Shown: positions 34,414 to 44,200 of the stretch, one piece after another
How the letters are laid out: every line of letters begins with the position of its first letter
Position numbering within the stretch: the stretch's first letter is position 1
Source: Ectocarpus siliculosus
Lineage: Eukaryota; Sar; Phaeophyceae; Ectocarpales; Ectocarpaceae
Length of the DNA: 64,000 nt
NCBI GenBank assembly: GCA_000310025.1
Contig: FN647849.1
Span: 286,793-350,792, forward strand
Direction: 5' to 3'
The notes under the pieces: generated by a model
The model's input: the letters and a program-made list of their open reading frames with translations, nothing else
What the model was told of the DNA's origin: nothing
Database searches by the model: none
Position numbers and translations under genes: made by a program

Positions 34414-37400
34414 ATGCCGGCGCGTTCCGCAGCGCACGTCTTGATTTGGCTCGTCTGCCTTCTCGTTGCCACTAGCGTTCACGCGCAAGGTAAGGATTTT
34501 CCCTTCGGCAAGCAAAGTGTGAACGAAACAGGGCGAAGATGATCTCCACCCCCTTCGGCTATTCCCAATTGTTTGGAACCGACATCCACCCGAAGAACAC
34601 ACCTTTTTACCTCCGGAAGGCGATGGCGTTTCGGTCCATATACAGAAGAACCGCACCCCCACACTTTTCATGGCAAACAAATATAGCAGCTCCAGCCACA
34701 TCCTGGAGAAGCGTGACTCGTTTCTGAGCCCTGCCTCAACTTCACTGGCCTACTCAAGTCAAGGATGGAGGATGTGGGTTGGATGTGGCACGCTCCCTGG
34801 CGTGCAGAAGAAAATATATACAATACAATCGGACAGGGCGCCAGCCTTTCGTGTTTGCAACGTGTCTTCGCGCACAACTGCGCAACCTTTCCAGCCAATA
34901 GTCCGCGGATACTTGTGTTGGCTCGGATTGAACAAGCCATGGTTCGTACTTCCTCCGCGCAATTCCCTGACAAAGCTAATCGTCCTTCGGCGCTTGTTTC
35001 TGCTGTGGCGCTGGGCTGTTTTTTCCCCCGTGTGCCGTACACCGTACACGTCTTATCCTCGTGATTTACGTTAATAATCTTCCGCTAACGCCAAAGCCAA
35101 TGCGAGCAGGCTGCTCGAATGAAGCTCGATTCATTGCCGAGGCTTACCATACTTAACTGAGTCCCTCCTGCACGAAACGGGACGGGACCTCACACCCCTC
35201 CTCTCCGTGCACAACAACCAACCCTCCAGGGCCTACGTGCAACAACGGTGTTCCGGGCGTCCAGTCGGAAGCTTTCGAAGACATTTGCTGCGATCCTGGG
35301 TGTCGGCAGTGTGGCGGCCCACAGTGTATCTCCGCCAATCGGCCAGTCGGACTCGGAGAGCCAGATTGTTGCAACAGCGGTATCCGCAACGCCGGCGATG
35401 ATTGCGCTACCACTGGAGAAGGGCCGTGTGTAATCTTCCCCCAAGGTGATCTTGTCTGGCGTATTTTCTCCAGAGCCGTCGAGGCGATGGGCTCCGGCTC
35501 TCGGGCAGCCGGGGATGGGTGTGGCCCGATTTGTTCTCGCGAACCCACGTGCCTCTGCGGTTTCGAGGCTGATTGACTACTGACCATGTTTCATTTATCG
35601 CCAAACGAAGAGCAGAAGGTTGCTTCATTCAGTATTCGCCCGTGGCAACGCAAGAGAACCATTGAGAGTGTGGAAGATGGAGGCCCTCGCTCGAACTATT
35701 CTCACTTCTCACTCGCTCACACCCAGCTTATTCCCGCCCCTTGTGTGGTTAACTACAGTATCTCGAAGTGAAAGCATCAGAGAATATATTAAACCATTCG
35801 CAGCTGTCATCCGTATGCAAGGAAGTAAGGAATGATGTCGAACATCCTTAGCAGGATGCAGCGCATCCTTCATGCGACTCGCCGAATACCTCACGGCGCT
35901 TCGCGCTTGGTGATGTGAGAACCTGGTCCGGTGATAACCTGGCGTGCTCCGTCCCGGCTTTGTAGGGAAGCAAGATCAATGGTCTAACTACTACGGTATG
36001 CACGGCTGTGAGTAACCCCCCCCTTACTTGTCGCGCGAACTCTCGACCAGGTGCAGAAAACCAGTGCTTGAACCTCACCAACAACGCCAACCGATGCAGC
36101 GTCAACGAGGACGGATTTATGTAAGACCCTCCACCTAGATTGACTTTACTCCTACCTTTCAAGTGTTTTTGACCGAGACCAGTGATAGTGATGGCTGATG
36201 GCATGATGTGGTGAGGTTAATTTGCCTCACTACAGGAAATCCGGATATACATACCGACTATACGCGCGATCGTTCTTGCTCGTTTTTTTTTTTATGATCA
36301 CGTTACGTTTCATGTGACCCAGCTTCCCGTCGCCCCATCCATGTTGAAGAATTTTTCGAGGCGTCAAAAAATTAAATGCGTAGCAAAAACCGAAATGAGT
36401 AGCCCCGTGGGTTGGCAGACAAATGCACCTATATACACGCGAAGGAAAATGCTCAACGCGCCAAAACGAAGCGAGTTGTAGAGTTTCCTTGTATTCCGTT
36501 TCTTGTGGAATTATGTCGCGTCCACCTCAGGGATCTGTCTGTTTGCGGAATAACCGACCAAGATGTCGAAGCGGGAGACTTGGCGGCATGCCTCGACGCC
36601 GCTGGACGACAAACCATCCTTGATCTGTGAGTGCCTGGCGATATCTTCACTCGCGGTGATGATTCCTTGCTGCTGGCTGGTGCTCCTCCTACTCTGGGCA
36701 CCAAACATAGTCGAACGCATGATCAGCTCCGTCTTGTGGATTTATATTCAAATCGCAGCATCGCGCCCGAACCCACGTAGCCGTAGGCTAACTCCTGCCC
36801 CTTACCCACTGCCCTGTATGTCTCTCTTTTTCGACATCAACAGGAGCCTTGCAAGGAACGACCTGACGACTCTGCCTCCGACCATCTTTAACTCCCTTGC
36901 GAACCTGGGAAGTCTGTAAGTCCCGCCGAAGGCAGGCGGAGGGGTTTCACCCCTGTAATGAAGGACTCAATGATTCCAACTATGTGAAATTGTTCCAAAC
37001 CCGCGCGATGATGCAGTATACCTACAAGCATATCGCGTATTCAATGGACAATCTTGTGCTCATAGTCCAAACAATTGTCAGTGAATGCGAGTGCATGAAC
37101 GCAGCTGCTGACACCTGGCCCTCGCCGCTGCTCTGTTGGCCTTTCCGCCGACGTCCCCAAAACAACCAGGAGTCTGTTCGGGGATTTTTCCAGGGGTCTG
37201 GTGACTCTTCCCTCGGGAATCTTCGACTCGCTCACGAAACTTAGAAGCCTGTGAGTACCGCCGAAGTTGGCACGCACGGCTTCCACCTTGGTGTTCCCGT
37301 GTGACGCATGGCTGAGGTAAATTCGTGATAGCCTGTTTGCTGCCGTTCGTTAACTTCGCACATCCCGTGTGTGTGGTCTGTCGATTTGGTTCTCCTCTAT

Positions 37401-40400
37401 CAGCCGTCTCGGGTGTACGCCACCTCACATCGGCGTCGACGGTCGCGACCAAGCGAAACAACAGTAAGCCCTGGCTAACATCTACCCCTTCCTCGCCGCC
37501 GTGCTTTGTCTCTCTCCGCCGACATCAATAGGCGTCTGGAGGACAACGACCTGACGACTCTGCCTCCGACCATCTTTAACTCCCTTACGGCCCTGGAAGA
37601 TCTGTAAGTCCCGCCGAAGGCAGGCGGCGGGGTTTCACCCCTGTAATGAAGAACCCACCGATTCTATGCTGTGAAATCGTCGCAAACACGTACGATGCAG
37701 TACAGCTAAGCATCTCGCGTCTTCAACTCCACATTCCAAAACCTTGTCATCGAATGAAAATTGTCGTAGTCGAGCTGCTGACGCCTTGGCCCTCGCCTCT
37801 GCTCTGCTGGCCTCTTTGCCGACGTCCCGAAAACAAACAGGCGTCTGGATGGCAACGGTCTGGTGACTCTTCCCTCGGGAATTTTCGACTCACTCACAGA
37901 ACTTACTGCCCTGTGAGCTCCGCCGAAGTTCACACGCACGGCTTCCACCTTGGTGTTCCCGTGTGATGCATGGCTGAAGTGAATTTATGATAGCCTGCTT
38001 GTTGCCGTTCGCCTGCTGCGAACATCCCATACGTGTCGGTTGTCGATTTAGTTCTGCTCTGCCAGCCACCGTTCCGTCTCGGGTGTACCTCACCTCACAT
38101 CGGTGTCGACGGTCGCGACCAAGCGAAACAACAGCAAGCCCTGGCTAACATCTACCCCTTCCTCGCCGCCGTGCTTGTCTCTCTCCGCCGATATCAAAAG
38201 GAGCATCTCAAGGAACGACCTGACGACTCTGCCTCCGACCATCTTTAACTTCCTTACGAAACTAAATTTTCTGTAAGTCCCGTTGACCGAGGTATGTAGG
38301 CGGTGGGGTTTCGCCCCTGAATAAAGAACCCAACAGTTGGAACTACGTGGTGAAATTATCCCCAAACCGCGTGCTGCGGTAATCCAAAGATTCTACTGTA
38401 GCGTGTTCAACTACCAAGATCTGGTCTTCATCTTCCCAACACTTTTCTTTGAATGTTTGTCGTGACCAAGTGCGTGAACGCAAGTTGCTGATATCTGCCC
38501 CTTATCCCTTTTCCTGTCTGACTCTCTCCGCCGACATCAACAGGGGCATTTCAAACAACGAGCTTCTGACGACTCTGCCTCCCACCATCTTAAACTCCCT
38601 TACGGTCCTGACGTTTCTGTAAGTCCCGCCGAACGAGGGAGGTAATGGGGTTTCACCACAAAATTTCCCCGTTGATGAAGGACCCAAGAAATTGAAGCAC
38701 GTAGTGATGTTGTTCCCAGACCGCGCGATGCAGCACACGCCTAAGCACCTCGCGCCTTCAATTGCCAGTCTGGCTTCATATTCCAAACACGTTATTTGAA
38801 TGAGCATTGTCATTATCGAGTACATGCAAGCAGTGGCTGACACCTGCTCCTTCCCCGCCGCTCTGCTGGTCTCTTCTTTGACGCCCCGAAAATATGCAGG
38901 GTTCTGTCCAACAGTGGTTTGGTGACTTTGCCCTCGGGAATCTTCGACTCACTCGCGGAACTCACATTCCTGTGAGTACCGCCGAAGTTGTAGCACGTAA
39001 AGCTTCCTCCTTGATCTTCCCGCGTGATGCATGGCTGAAGTGGTTGCTACGGGTCGCCAACGACGCACATCCCGTGCGTGTTCATCTGTCGTTTTGGTTC
39101 TGCTCTATCAGTCACCGTTCCGTCTAGTGTGTACCTCACCTCGCGTCGGCGTTGACGACGGTCGCGACCAAGCGAAACAACAAAAAACACCAGTGGCTAA
39201 CACCTTCTCCTTCCCCACCGCTCTGCTGGTCTCTTCGCCTTCGCCCTAAAAACTACCAGGAGTCTTCGTGGCAACAGTCTGACGACTCTGCCTACGGATA
39301 TCTTTAACTCCCTTGAGAAGCTGGGAAGTCTGTAAGTCCTGCCCAAGGCAGGCGGCCGGGTTCACCCGTGTAATGAAGGACCCAACGTGCCAACTATGTA
39401 GTAGTGAAATTGTTCCAAACCCGCGCGATGCAATACACTGAAGCATCTCGTGTCTTCAACTGCTAATCTGGTCTTCATCTTCATCGTCGTAATCGAGTGC
39501 ATGAACGCAGCTACTTACACCTGGCCCTCGCCGCTGCTCTGCCGGCCTATTCGCCGACATCCCGAAAATATCAGAAACCTCAATGGCAACGTTCTGGTGA
39601 CTCTTCCGTCGGGAATCTTCGACTCACTCACGCAACTTGAAACCCTGTGAGTACCGCCGAAGTTGGAGCACGCGCGTTTTCCCCCTTCCTGTTCCCACGT
39701 GATGCATAGCTGAGGGGCTGGTGCACTTTATGTTGTTCTGGTCGCTGTAGTTCGCCGACTACGCACATCCCGCACATCCCATGTGCCATGTGTAGATTTG
39801 GTCTTGCTCTCTCAAGCACGGATGCGTCTCGGGTGTACCCTACCCTAACTTGGTGCGTCGGCTGTCGCGACCAAGCGAAACAACAGCATTGGCGGATACC
39901 TGCCCCTCCCTTTCCGCGCTGCTTGTCCCCCTCGTCTGACACCCGAAAAACAAGCAAGACAAAGGATGTGATGCTGTTGAACGAGTGCTGGACATTGAGT
40001 TGAATTTGATTGGATCTATGTGCATTTGTCTGAGGGCACACGAAATAATCACACTCCAATAACTTTGAAGTATTATGATGTCATGCCGACTACAGTAGTT
40101 GTTTCAGTTGTATCGCCTGCTCGAGGAAAAACCGTTGACAGCTGGGATGGCAACTCACACGTTGAGCCAGTGATCAGCGTGCTTCGTTTTGGGATGATGT
40201 TGATCGAGCATTCGACAATTATACATCGATTGTTCTTTGACCCCGACAAGATATGAAAAAGTCATTCAGGCAGTTTCATTGAGTCGTATGTTCCAATGCC
40301 GCGGTTAACGCCTTTCGTCATTGCGACTTCTGGTCGTGTGCAGGGACGTACGCGAAAACCCGGGCCTGCAGTGCCTCCCCACCGTGCCACCGACGGCGGT

Positions 40401-41267
40401 CAGGTAAGAATTTGTGTCGCCTTGTATTTTCATTTTGGATTCGTTTGTTATTGTTGGTTCAGCACGAGCAAGAAGTCGACATGTAGAATAGCTTTCTGTT
40501 TATTGTACATCTCGAAGCAAATTGATACACGTAACTTAGTCCTAGAGTTCACGTTCCTTGCCGGATTTTTCTAGCATACGGTGGGTACTGACATAGACAG
40601 GAGTTCGAAGTACTGTGTACTTGGCTGCACCTTCTGTTGGATTGCGTGCGCAGCCACACATGATATGTATGTCGAAGGTTTGAGGATTTCAGGATGCAAA
40701 TTGCACGTCTTTGTGCAAGGTTCGCAGCTGTGTACATGGGCGCAATGCCGACGGCGTGATATTTCCGCAGGGTCGCTCACAAACCAATATATTCGCATCA
40801 ATCGTGGGTACTTCTGTGCACGTTAGATGCGCCTTTCACGACATCATCGATGAAAGAACAGAAATACTCCGTTTTGCCGACACCCGCACCTTTCCTCTGC
40901 GTCTTGCTCCGTTTGCCTCCTCGCAGTCAACTGAGGGTCGACACAGTCGGCACTGAATGCGGTGAGTTAGTATGTTCCAAGAGCGATCGGACGAACGGAA
41001 GAACAAAAAATCTGGATGAAACCTCGCACTACAACACTTCACCACACTGCAACTCATCCGTCCTCAACATGTATGTGGATTGAATAAAATTGCGACCTGT
41101 TCGGCCTGCGGCACGCGCTTCGCGGCGTGTCTATACTTCAATGCGTCATCTTGCATGTTTTGTGCATGCACGCGTCTTTGCAACTACAGGGTGTTTCCTC
41201 CCCGATGTAAGCAACCCGTGTGGCGAAAACGAATCATGCTCGCCTGGTGCCAGAGGATTCACGTGTG
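34414..41267 (+). CDS. Secreted Cys-module / LRR / EGF-like protein (3' end unresolved)
   Basis: Sixteen plus-strand exons join in phase for about 430 residues: 34414-34489, 35230-35445, 36051-36120, 36531-36626, 36844-36915, 37170-37250, 37532-37603, 37841-37912, 38201-38272, 38544-38618, 38900-38971, 39260-39331, 39575-39646, 40344-40403, 40927-40961 and 41190-41267. Exon 1 is a signal peptide ending SVHAQ. Exon 2 is one complete Cys-rich module, the same as in the left-edge gene. Exon 4 opens the LRR region (LDLSVCGITDQD). The next nine exons each encode one 24-27-residue LRR of the form L-x-x-N-x-L-T/V-T-L-P-x-x-I-F-x-S-L-x-x-L. A C-terminal cap follows (VRENPGLQCLPTVPP), then a Cys-containing exon and an EGF-like exon (CGENESCSPGARGFTC). 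LRR exons are phase 2-2; the Cys-module exon and the EGF-like exon are phase 1-1. Extracellular recognition is inferred. No membrane anchor or stop was securely found. Confidence 0.88.
35757..36027 (+). repeat. Dispersed repeat, TGGTCTAAC family (copy 4)
   Basis: This is similar to 16548-16822 over its length. Its TGGTCTAAC core at 35980-35988 is followed by a C-run, and the predicted acceptor of exon 3 of the LRR gene comes at 36050. Confidence 0.8.
36844..39646 (+). repeat. Array of nine one-LRR exons with homologous introns
   Basis: The exons start at 36844, 37170, 37532, 37841, 38201, 38544, 38900, 39260 and 39575, spaced 309-362 bases apart. Two types occur. Type A (LTTLP-PTIF-NSL, donor GTAAGT) is at positions 1, 3, 5, 6 and 8. 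Type B (LVTLP-SGIF-DSL, donor GTGAGT) is at 2, 4, 7 and 9. Intron ends are type specific (ATCAACAG or similar before A, CGAAAACAAACAG or similar before B). The array grew by segmental duplication of exon plus intron. Confidence 0.92.
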
Positions 41268-44200
41268 GTAAGAGAACTACATGTAATACCTGACAATCCG
41301 CTCGCTGATGTCGTCGATTGTACATACGCATTAAGCAATTGTCAACGCTGGTGCCGTCTCCAAGTATTTGGTTGTCCCTTCCTTACATGACATGTCCGGG
41401 CCATCAGCCACAATCCATAACGAGCGGTAACAACGAGGGTCATTCCAACCCGAACAACACCAAGTGGCAATATGATAGAGCAAAACAGATGTGCAACATT
41501 GCCCTGGCAACCCACACGCTCAAGCAGAACATTGCTGTGGACAATGTCGTCTCACTTTTCTAAACTGCCGCCGCTACTGCGTTAGGCGGCCACTGCTGTC
41601 CTTCCGTTGCTTCACGCGCTCTGTAGCTGTCACACGTTACCCGACTTTGCTACAGCCCCTGCGTGGACTCGATCACGGAATGACACCCCCAACTATAGAC
41701 TAATAATTCCAAACACCGTGACCCTGGGTTTCCGGTAGAAAATGAAGCCAAATTCTAATTCGACTGTTACAAAATAAACACCAGTTTATTCTATCTGCTT
41801 CGACGAACAAACCTTCCTACTTTCTTCGTCGTAGGATACAGACTTTGCATTTTCTCTCCACGCTTAACCCTTCAGTAGTCGAGCACGCCGTTGGGTATGG
41901 AAGTGGTGTCGCTATTCCCAATCCTTACAGGCAAGAAGCGATTATATTGGCCTGTTTGACATGGCCGTCGAACCCACCACCCAAGCCCAGCATCCATTCC
42001 GGATTTGACATAGTCTACTAGAGTTCCTCACGGCTCGGCAAGGAAACGGATGCGCAGGAAACGTGCGAACTCGCTGGAAGCGCGCAATAAGCAGCAGGGT
42101 TAGGGGTCGAGATCGGGATCTGGTACAAGACGCAATGGATGGTTGCCTTAGGAGCGTTTGTCCGGAAGATACCGTAGAAAACAGAGTGTTGCCAGATGTA
42201 ATGTACCTCTGGTGGCACTAATGAACGATACCCTACTACACACCTTGACGAAAAACGAACACCGACACGTGGCACGTGTAGCTTTTGCGAAACAACGACG
42301 ATGATCAAAATGCACCAGGAGCCGCCATCAAAACTACGAAAATAAACACTCCGTATGCGTCAACGCCATCATTTTGATCCCTTTGCAGGTTTATGAACGT
42401 GGCACTCCTGCCGCCCAATCGAGCATGGTGTGTGTGGAGCCTCCATGCGGTTGACCCACGGTGGGGGCACAGGGGCTGGCCTCGGCCTTGAGTGTTGCCG
42501 CTCGAGCGACATTCATTCTCGAGTCTGGACTTGTCTGCGAAACGCGAACAACCACCAAATAGCGCCGTACGTCATCCCATCTCCTCCTCTCCTCCTTGAT
42601 TGGGTGGGCCGAGGACACGATAACTCCGTGTGTTGGTCGTTGGCCCGGTGCCAAGAGCTCCAGGCGCAGCCTCTCCGTTGCTTCCCGTACACTTGGTTCT
42701 TGGGAAATTGTCGAGTAGTTTCCAGAGAGGCAATCTACCAGAAGCCCCAGGTCGAGCTACTTTTAGCTTTTCTCTCCGGGGGCTGATGTATGCCTGGTCG
42801 GTCAGCGATGGTGTACCTATTGCTTGAACTTTCATTCGTTATGGCGCGTAGAGAGGTGGTACCTTGGCAAGGCGCTGTTTTGTCGGACATGGTGTCAAGA
42901 TGAGCGGCCCTCCTCCCTAGAGAGCTAAAGTGTCACACTGCGTGACTGTGTTGAAATACAGCACATGGCCGCTGTAGGATGTTTGTAGCTGTGTGATTGG
43001 CGTATGCAATGAAAAGTAGATGCGGTGTGAAATACGGTGCATCCGTCTTGCTGGGGGAGGTGAAAAGTGATTCTGGTGAATGAAATGAAGGTAGAGTGAA
43101 AATGGGGTCACGCATGGGCGGGGTTGAAATCGGTTGCTTTTGTTGTACAAAAATCGGTATTGGTAAAAACAGTCTGTTATGAAGTACATAGTGTACGAAA
43201 GACATCAAGTTGTGTTGGTTCGGTGTGATGGTAGACTGTTTTCTTCGATAGAGATGGATTCGTTTGGTCGTACTGGTGAAATAGAAAAAAAGGGGAATGA
43301 AGTATTTGTCTTGGTTCAAGTGTGTGATGGGTGATAAGTGGCGTTTGATAGAACGCAACATGTAGCGGCGAGTTATAGTGAGGAGCTCGTGAATATGTTA
43401 ACTATTGATCGTAGGAGATTGTAATCGTAGCGAGATCCCGAGGCGTGGCGAGCCCCACCAGGCTCACTCCCAACTACAGTACTTCGAGTATCAACATCTC
43501 AACTCTGCAAATAATCTGTAAAGTGGAGAAATTGAAAAGCACAAGACCCAAAATCGACTTCGGCCACTGCCTCCACAGGCTTCGGTCTGCACTTCATACA
43601 GACTGTCCGGAAGTTACCTGCAAAAGGCTTATCCGCCGGCAGACAACCGTTGGTACAGGGCACCTCGACCACAAATATTGACAGATAATGTTATGTGTTG
43701 AGCACTCGTGTGCTGCGTGCCGTGCAGGCTGGTGAAATTTCTCACCACCGTTGGTTCTGGCTTCGATTTTCTCCCTCTTGGTACATTCGAATTGTACATT
43801 GTGTTTGGTGGAAATTCACAGGGTGTTCTCCTTTGATTCTGTGCTTGCTGTAGGGTACATGTACGCATATCGCACCCAGTTCCCCCCCCCCGTCAAACAC
43901 GGCTACATGACATAAACGGGGTATGTGTTACCCTTGATTGATTCCGTCTCTTCGAGATCTAAATTGGCTACATAAGACAATAGATCGAAGGCCCCACTTT
44001 TTCAGCCTCAATTTCGTATCTTCCCAAGATACCTTTCCCAGAGTGCAAACTACGTACTGTGTATCTCCCGCGTCAAGCAGATCGACTGGACTGTCGTGCC
44101 ACGTGTCGGCGACGAGGACGGCGAGGCAGGCTCCGGGAAGTTGGTTGTTGCCGTACTTTGCCGAACGTGGTCGTGGGGGTATACCTCACTCCTGTGCCAG

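What the first reader, a model, noticed from the sequence alone, without database searches (positions are those of the whole stretch)
34414..41267. Secreted LRR receptor-like gene with one exon per repeat and a VLR-like LRR consensus
Seen: nine consecutive single-LRR exons, all phase 2-2, in a protein with a signal peptide, a Cys module and an EGF-like exon. Known: the L-T-x-L-P-x-G-I-F-D-S-L consensus resembles the LRR class of lamprey variable lymphocyte receptors, and single-LRR exons have been reported, as I recall, for brown algal ROCO-type genes. Inference: a fast-evolving recognition protein outside the ROCO/NB-ARC classes.
Basis: partly seen in the sequence, partly recalled or inferred. 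Interest (0 to 1): 0.8.

Follow-up and report, generated by a model that had tools for sequence, protein, structure and literature searches.

The report
Secreted algal LRR proteins, diversified exons
A brown-alga gene encodes a probably secreted, horseshoe-shaped binding protein built from one small exon per repeat, and the exon parts that form the binding face vary far more than the rest, which makes it a candidate recognition protein, though neither its expression nor its target is known.

Summary
At 34414-41267 (+) lies an open 16-exon gene model: signal peptide, Cys module, Cys N-cap, nine single-LRR exons (seven of 72 nt, one 75, one 81; all phase 2-2) and a Cys C-cap. The "EGF-like exon" is part of the C-cap and needs a missed 35-nt exon (40927-40961). 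The consensus is ordinary extracellular LRR, not specifically VLR. The gene belongs to a family in this genome, probably a brown alga; seven members read here have single-LRR exons. Codons for the concave (binding) face differ between repeats more than flanking introns in four of five exon sets; the fifth points the same way without significance. The exon core is nearly fixed. Two related loci carry 5 and at least 12 LRR exons. Each intron cuts the binding strand in the middle, so every strand is built from two exons; published brown-algal ROCO exons appear to keep the strand in one exon. Best reading: secreted recognition proteins diversified in the germline by exon duplication plus selection. 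Ligand, transcript, splicing variants and strain variation are untested. New variant of a known kind.

The parts
34414..34489 (+). exon 1: start codon and signal peptide (MPARSAAHVLIWLVCLLVATSVHAQ)
   Evidence: a crude scan finds a signal-peptide-like start upstream in five of six sibling loci
35230..35445 (+). exon 2: Cys module, symmetric phase 1-1, 216 nt
   Evidence: 63 of the 96 matches are such modules elsewhere in the genome; no Pfam, NCBIfam or PDB sequence match; not found in the six sibling loci as fetched
36051..36120 (+). exon 3: first part of the Cys N-cap (ENQCLNLTNNANRCSVNEDGF)
   Evidence: aligns to NPCLDPASEAYLCSVNGTE of the homologue in L003
36531..36626 (+). exon 4: second part of the N-cap (DLSVCGITDQDVEAGDLAACLDAAGRQTILD)
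36844..36915 (+). LRR exon 1 (type A), 72 nt
37170..37250 (+). LRR exon 2 (type B), 81 nt with a 9-nt insertion that creates a second in-frame acceptor before 37194
37532..37603 (+). LRR exon 3 (type A), 72 nt
37841..37912 (+). LRR exon 4 (type B), 72 nt
38201..38272 (+). LRR exon 5 (type A), 72 nt
38544..38618 (+). LRR exon 6 (type A), 75 nt
38900..38971 (+). LRR exon 7 (type B), 72 nt
39260..39331 (+). LRR exon 8 (type A), 72 nt
39575..39646 (+). LRR exon 9 (type B), 72 nt
40344..40403 (+). exon 14: start of the C-cap (DVRENPGLQCLPTVPPTAV)
   Evidence: matches VDDTTVGTCG of the homologue in L003 and HVDLYGDECG / HVDTYGTECG of siblings C33 and C16:6.73M
41190..41267 (+). exon 16: end of the C-cap (CFLPDVSNPCGENESCSPGARGFTC); TGA at 41291-41293 if the following GTAAGA donor is not used

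Best explanation
This is one member of a brown-algal family of secreted (extracellular or cell-wall) LRR recognition proteins. Signal peptide, Cys N-cap, a run of nearly equal LRR exons and a Cys C-cap give a soluble horseshoe. The window copy has in addition a symmetric phase 1-1 Cys-module exon, probably acquired by exon shuffling. The repertoire is diversified in the germline in two ways: (i) unequal exchange between near-identical exon-intron units changes the number of LRR exons without breaking the frame; (ii) selection keeps the codons that face the concave surface different between repeats while the exon core stays homogeneous. Because every intron cuts the LxxL-x-L-x-x-N strand inside its second Leu codon, each binding strand combines the 3' end of one exon (x2, x3) with the 5' end of the next (x5, x7, x8). 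Every duplication, loss or skipping of an exon therefore makes a new strand. SHOWN: gene anatomy, family, face-specific variation, different exon numbers at related loci. INFERRED: secretion, recognition as the function, unequal exchange and selection as the causes. NOT TESTED: transcript, ligand, alternative splicing, strain variation.
For: Anatomy: 16 exons with AG/GT borders and one open frame; caps checked against a homologue with both caps in one exon. Six sibling loci with single-LRR exons; 23 N-cap matches in the genome at E<=10, 16 of them at E<=0.05. Amino-acid variation sits on the six concave positions: exact permutation p = 2.2e-4 (window A exons), 2.8e-4 (window B), 0.015 (C33, five units); 3e-5 (C15, 12 units), 0.03 (C33, four units), 0.0019 (C16:6.77M, six units). 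Nucleotide diversity of concave codons vs flanking introns: 0.583/0.337 (A), 0.556/0.297 (B), 0.315/0.042 (C33, four units), 0.386/0.146 (C15, 11 units), 0.348/0.240 (C16:6.77M), with column-bootstrap P = <1e-4, 0.0006, 0.0002, <1e-4, 0.066; core 0.03-0.08. Window B core: pN 0.020, pS 0.240, so the framework there is under purifying selection. C33 and C15 loci match at 87-95% DNA identity over most of the gene yet carry 5 and at least 12 LRR exons.
Against: No transcript, strain or second species was available, so expression and variation between individuals are untested. The cruder test (fraction of variable columns, exon ends vs introns) fails for window A (p=0.19) and C33 with five units (p=0.21), and for C15 (0.99) and C16:6.77M (0.98). 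In C16:6.77M whole ends do not exceed introns by diversity either (0.184 against 0.240). Only 5 of 10 window A pairs show ends above introns at p<0.05, against 5 of 6 in B and 5 of 6 in C33. In window A the core has pN about equal to pS (0.079 and 0.074), so purifying selection is not shown there. Silent sites in the exon ends are also raised, so gene conversion that spares the ends, or local hypermutation, could contribute. No membrane anchor or signalling domain was found, so 'receptor' is not shown.
Confidence: 0.6

Rival explanations
1. A structural or adhesive extracellular-matrix protein whose concave face is simply free to vary; the array is a passive product of tandem duplication.
For: Cys modules of this type elsewhere alternate with Pro/Thr-rich (PTAPVAE) exons like wall glycoproteins (L009), and two homologues have Pro-rich stretches after a C-cap (L003; L004). 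Concave residues are solvent exposed and vary in most LRR proteins (general knowledge).
Against: Free drift should bring concave codons up to intron divergence, not above it; in C33 concave codons are 0.315 against introns 0.042, in C15 0.386 against 0.146. The C16:6.77M set alone does not exclude drift (P=0.066).
Confidence: 0.2
2. A gamete, self or non-self recognition protein, or a soluble inhibitor of pathogen enzymes (as plant PGIPs are), rather than an immune receptor: same diversification, different partner.
For: Soluble secreted architecture with no anchor found; reproductive and inhibitor LRR proteins also evolve fast (general knowledge).
Against: No specific evidence for it; expression pattern unknown.
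Confidence: 0.15
3. A mutational or recombinational effect: conversion homogenises introns and exon cores while the exon ends escape or mutate faster, with little selection on the protein.
For: Silent sites in the ends are raised too (window A pS 0.61 in concave codons, 0.385 in the Leu/Asn codons of the ends). In C15 the SLGNN 5' end occurs in differing codon versions and with both EL and AE 3' ends.
Against: Within the ends, structural codons 1, 4 and 20 change amino acid much less than concave ones (pN 0.109, 0.184 and 0.000 against 0.577, 0.597 and 0.308 in window A, window B and C33).
Confidence: 0.05

Closest known systems
Brown algal LRR-ROCO genes with shuffled 72-bp LRR exons (Teng et al. 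2024, PMC11378527: abstract, sections 3, 11, 15 and passages read; Zambounis et al. 2012, not held, not read)
   Same: One LRR per 72-bp exon, constant phase, concave sites under diversifying selection, shuffled exons. That paper also mentions 15 non-ROCO sequences with such exons in Saccharina japonica, most with LRRs only.
   Different: Signal peptide and Cys caps, no ROC-COR. The intron lies inside the binding strand: here the whole LRR codons are exon nt 2-70 and the conserved Asn is residue 5 of 23; from that text (nt 3-71, selected sites 14, 16, 18, 19) I infer that ROCO exons hold the whole strand (figure not seen).
[quoted passage not shown]
   Same: Equal-length phase-2 LRR exon arrays; the authors propose unequal crossing-over.
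   Different: 90 bp not 72, another lineage; the Cys caps seen here are not mentioned in the passages read.
Lamprey variable lymphocyte receptors (recalled; solved structures matched)
   Same: 24-residue extracellular LRRs with a similar backbone and variable concave face.
   Different: No LRRNT or LRRCT cap by Pfam; complete germline gene with its own splice sites; no cassette assembly shown.
Brown algal LRR receptor kinases (2 in Ectocarpus: PMC3268121, passages; PMC8307928, passages)
   Same: Extracellular LRRs in a brown alga.
   Different: Those have a membrane span and kinase; none found here. Exon structure is not described in the passages seen.
Plant PGIPs and other soluble LRR proteins (recalled)
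   Same: Soluble secreted LRR horseshoe.
   Different: Recalled to have another repeat class and caps; one LRR per exon here.

Membership tests
Lamprey/hagfish VLR | LRRNT and LRRCT caps | tested here: not met
   Pfam lists only LRR families up to E=1; caps align instead to an algal cap type
Lamprey/hagfish VLR | incomplete germline gene assembled from cassettes | tested here: not met
   the germline copy is complete from signal peptide to C-cap with spliceable exons
Brown algal LRR-ROCO | ROC-COR domain tandem | tested here: not met
   Pfam scan of the protein shows LRR only; the genome's COR-A and COR-B matches are on other contigs, C17 and C19
Brown algal LRR-ROCO | one 72-bp LRR exon per repeat | tested here: met
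   7 of 9 exons are 72 nt, all phase 2-2
Brown algal LRR-ROCO | position of the intron within the repeat as reported for ROCO | tested here: inconclusive
   differs by inference from the text of PMC11378527; no ROCO LRR exon was found in this genome to compare
   no EGF family in Pfam; the exon belongs to the LRR C-cap
LRR receptor kinase | transmembrane span and kinase | tested here: inconclusive
   no kinase in Pfam and no span outside the signal peptide and LRRs, but a further 3' exon is not excluded
Capped-LRR family of this alga (N-cap CGITDxD, C-cap NPxLQC...CxPGxxGxxC) | both caps around the LRRs | tested here: met

The most novel reading that the evidence does not exclude
An algal counterpart of variable lymphocyte receptors: a secreted LRR family in which each binding strand is split between two exons, so that alternative splicing or somatic exchange among interchangeable exons makes a combinatorial repertoire of soluble binders within one individual (nine in-frame skippable exons would allow up to 512 forms from this gene alone).
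Probability: 0.1. Interest if true: 0.93.

Novelty: new variant of a known kind. Interest (0 to 1): 0.62.

Why it matters
[quoted passage not shown] A secreted LRR family with binding-face diversification and interchangeable exons would add a soluble extracellular candidate. The split-strand exon layout gives a directly testable idea of how exon duplication or skipping could make new binding surfaces.

Tried and rejected
EGF reading of the last exon: rejected after alignment with the homologue in L003. 57-nt version of LRR exon 2: kept only as a possible alternative acceptor, since the 81-nt form restores the LRR start. Donor loci for the LRR exons: a DNA search with 36627-40343 found only the window itself; that search can miss short or diverged copies. 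Relatives outside the genome: viral contigs gave none; no collection of eukaryotic genomes was on hand. ROCO arrays for comparison: one COR-A place and one COR-B place; no single-LRR exon found in the 17 kb fetched around the first (both strands) or in the 20 kb fetched around the second (+ strand only; the one frame that passed a loose pattern is not an LRR). Pro/Thr-rich stalk for the window gene: none in the window by pattern. Cys-module fold: AlphaFold from one sequence had mean pLDDT 41, so no fold search was made. Papers: searches listed no paper that, by title or abstract, describes this secreted family; besides the papers named above I saw passages of PMC4421812. The library lacks most subscription papers and the 2012 ROCO paper, so that is not proof of absence.
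Full report
1. What was reported and what is there. The nine LRR exons exist, on the + strand between 36844 and 39646, with AG/GT borders and phase 2-2 throughout. Seven are 72 nt, one 75, one 81. A strict scan of both strands of the window gives 7 hits, all in this array (the two odd-length exons miss the strict pattern); 60 Markov windows gave a mean of 0.08 and a maximum of 1. The complete model has 16 exons and reads without a stop up to its last donor.

2. The organism. The genome (189 Mb in 492 contigs) holds at least 150 EsV-1-7 repeats (150 of 880 first-look candidates were scored; 0 of 14 control genomes ring). I recall that domain as strongly expanded in brown algae, so I treat the host as a brown alga. 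No tool named it.

3. What the protein is. Pfam sees only LRR families. NCBIfam gives five bacterial LRR proteins, all far below their cut-offs. A homologue at C16:2.359M (L003) has one 575-codon frame in which the unit [N-cap with CLDP...CGITDD][LRRs][C-cap NPxLQCVP...CxC...C(I/V)PGExGxxC] is repeated, with Pro/Thr-rich linkers. Its upstream part does seem to have introns: a 72-nt LRR exon at L003:129 and an N-cap match at C16:2357881. Window exons 3-4 align to the N-cap and exons 14-16 to the C-cap. So the supposed EGF exon is cap sequence.

4. The family. An N-cap query finds 23 places in the genome at E<=10, 16 of them at E<=0.05, some places belonging to one gene. I read seven genes with single-LRR exons: the window, C33:4.145M (L005), C15:5.21M (L015-L016), C55:156k (L012, L020), C16:7.96M (L017-L018), C16:6.77M (L019) and C16:6.73M (L004; here the N-cap exon also holds the first LRR). 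In L021 (C33:4.45M), fetched for the same reason, the scan found no LRR exon. A crude scan finds a signal-peptide-like start upstream in five of the six siblings. None of the six shows the Cys module in the stretch fetched. Cys modules make up 63 of the 96 matches, a lower bound. In the L009 array, four of the five copies that the script picked out have the same 1-1 phases as window exon 2; for the fifth the acceptor was unclear. The window copy therefore probably gained its Cys exon by shuffling.

5. Where the repeats vary. Numbering the 23 whole codons of an exon from 0, the concave-face positions are 0, 2, 3, 5, 21, 22 (x5, x7, x8, x10 of one strand and x2, x3 of the next; the assignment follows general LRR knowledge). 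Amino-acid diversity is concentrated there: window A exons 0.82 against 0.22 elsewhere, exact p 2.2e-4; window B 0.81 against 0.13, p 2.8e-4; C33 five units 0.43 against 0.09, p 0.015; C15 twelve units p 3e-5, C33 four units p 0.03 and C16:6.77M six units p 0.0019.

6. Against introns. Mean diversity of concave codons vs flanking introns is 0.583/0.337 (window A), 0.556/0.297 (window B), 0.315/0.042 (C33, four units), 0.386/0.146 (C15, 11 units) and 0.348/0.240 (C16:6.77M). Bootstrap P is below 0.001 in the first four and 0.066 in the fifth. Whole exon ends exceed introns in the first four (P 0.031, 0.010, 0.0003, 0.025) and not in the fifth (0.86). The core is below introns in four of five and equal in C33. 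Rows left out: the fifth C33 unit, since its downstream intron is unrelated, and the last C15 unit, since its downstream intron differs. With pairwise alignment and all 12 C15 units, ends are 0.241 and introns 0.096; in C16:6.77M 0.184 and 0.195. Tests that count variable columns are weaker: ends exceed introns for window B (p 0.0025) and C33 four units (3.8e-5), not for window A (0.19) or C33 five units (0.21), nor C15 (0.99) or C16:6.77M (0.98). Pair by pair, ends exceed introns at p<0.05 in 5 of 10 window A, 5 of 6 window B and 5 of 6 C33 pairs. The clearest window pair, LRR exons 3 and 5, has 95 of 99 aligned intron bases identical upstream and 71 of 87 downstream, yet 18 of 34 end positions differ and 1 of 36 in the core. 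Copies share history, so pair counts are not independent.

7. How the arrays change. C33 and C15 match at 87-95% over most of the gene but carry 5 and at least 12 LRR exons; C15 has a 100-N gap between units 4 and 5, and near-identical units can be miscounted by an assembler. In C15, units 9 and 11 share a downstream intron at 99.3% but differ at 5 of 19 positions in the 5' end, and the SLGNN 5' end occurs with both EL and AE 3' ends. That suggests exchange between the two halves of the exon through the near-identical core; convergence is not excluded. Label shuffles in the same call give partial support only: 5' ends go with upstream introns (p 0.0018) and not with downstream ones (0.21), but 3' ends do not go with downstream introns (0.47) and do go weakly with upstream ones (0.018). 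The window LRR array showed no DNA relative elsewhere, so its copies probably arose inside the gene.

8. Mechanism. The phase-2 border falls inside the second Leu codon of LxxLxLxxN, in the middle of the binding strand. Each strand is thus built from two neighbouring exons, and any gain, loss or skipping of an exon keeps the frame and creates a new strand. Germline exon turnover plus selection on the binding face explains the data best. Secretion, binding and selection are inferred; splicing variants and somatic change are possible but untested.

9. Comparison with the literature. Teng et al. 2024 (PMC11378527; abstract, sections 3, 11, 15 and passages) describe 72-bp single-LRR exons in brown algal ROCO genes, diversifying selection at four concave sites, alternative splicing, and 15 non-ROCO sequences with such exons in Saccharina, most with LRRs only. 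The general phenomenon is therefore known; the secreted capped family, the comparison with introns and the split strand I did not meet in the searches listed. From the text, ROCO LRRs run from exon nt 3 to 71 with selected sites 14, 16, 18, 19, which places the whole strand inside the exon; here the codons are nt 2 to 70 with the Asn at residue 5. I infer a different register, not having seen the figure. Tetrahymena has 90-bp phase-2 LRR exon arrays (PMC6564038, passages). Ectocarpus has two LRR receptor kinases (PMC3268121, passages). Against solved structures the LRR part scores best with DLRR_K, LRRTM, IGFALS, LRRC15 and LGR5; natural VLR-A is row 13 of the 60 shown.

10. Verdict. Observation confirmed with corrections; interpretation partly supported; new variant of a known kind.

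Noticed in passing
L009 (C4:5413000-5420000) and 63 of 96 matches: Cys modules like window exon 2 form tandem arrays; in L009 they alternate with Pro/Thr-rich (PTAPVAE) exons. No Pfam, NCBIfam or PDB sequence match for the window copy.
   Followed up: partly
L003 769-2493 (C16:2.359M): One 575-codon frame encodes tandem capped-LRR modules without introns, in contrast to the one-exon-per-repeat genes; upstream parts of the same locus look intron-containing.
   Followed up: partly
L001 (C14:709000-719000): LRR exons come in two near-identical sets (462 and 7288; 3201 and 8684), as in a tandem gene duplication; further family matches lie on C14 between 673k and 816k.
   Followed up: no
window 37170-37250: A 9-nt insertion in LRR exon 2 brings a pyrimidine-rich stretch and a second in-frame AG acceptor, a natural candidate for an alternative splice site.
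   Followed up: no
window A-type LRR exons, core codons 6-17: Silent sites in the core are nearly fixed (pS 0.074) although introns differ by about 0.23; B-type cores do not show this (pS 0.240).
   Followed up: partly
whole genome G000: Only one COR-A and one COR-B match, although brown algae are reported rich in ROCO genes; the models may miss them.
   Followed up: partly
window, ten long open frames outside the gene (of 161 frames of 110 aa or more): The ten open frames tested have no Pfam match at E<=0.01.
   Followed up: no
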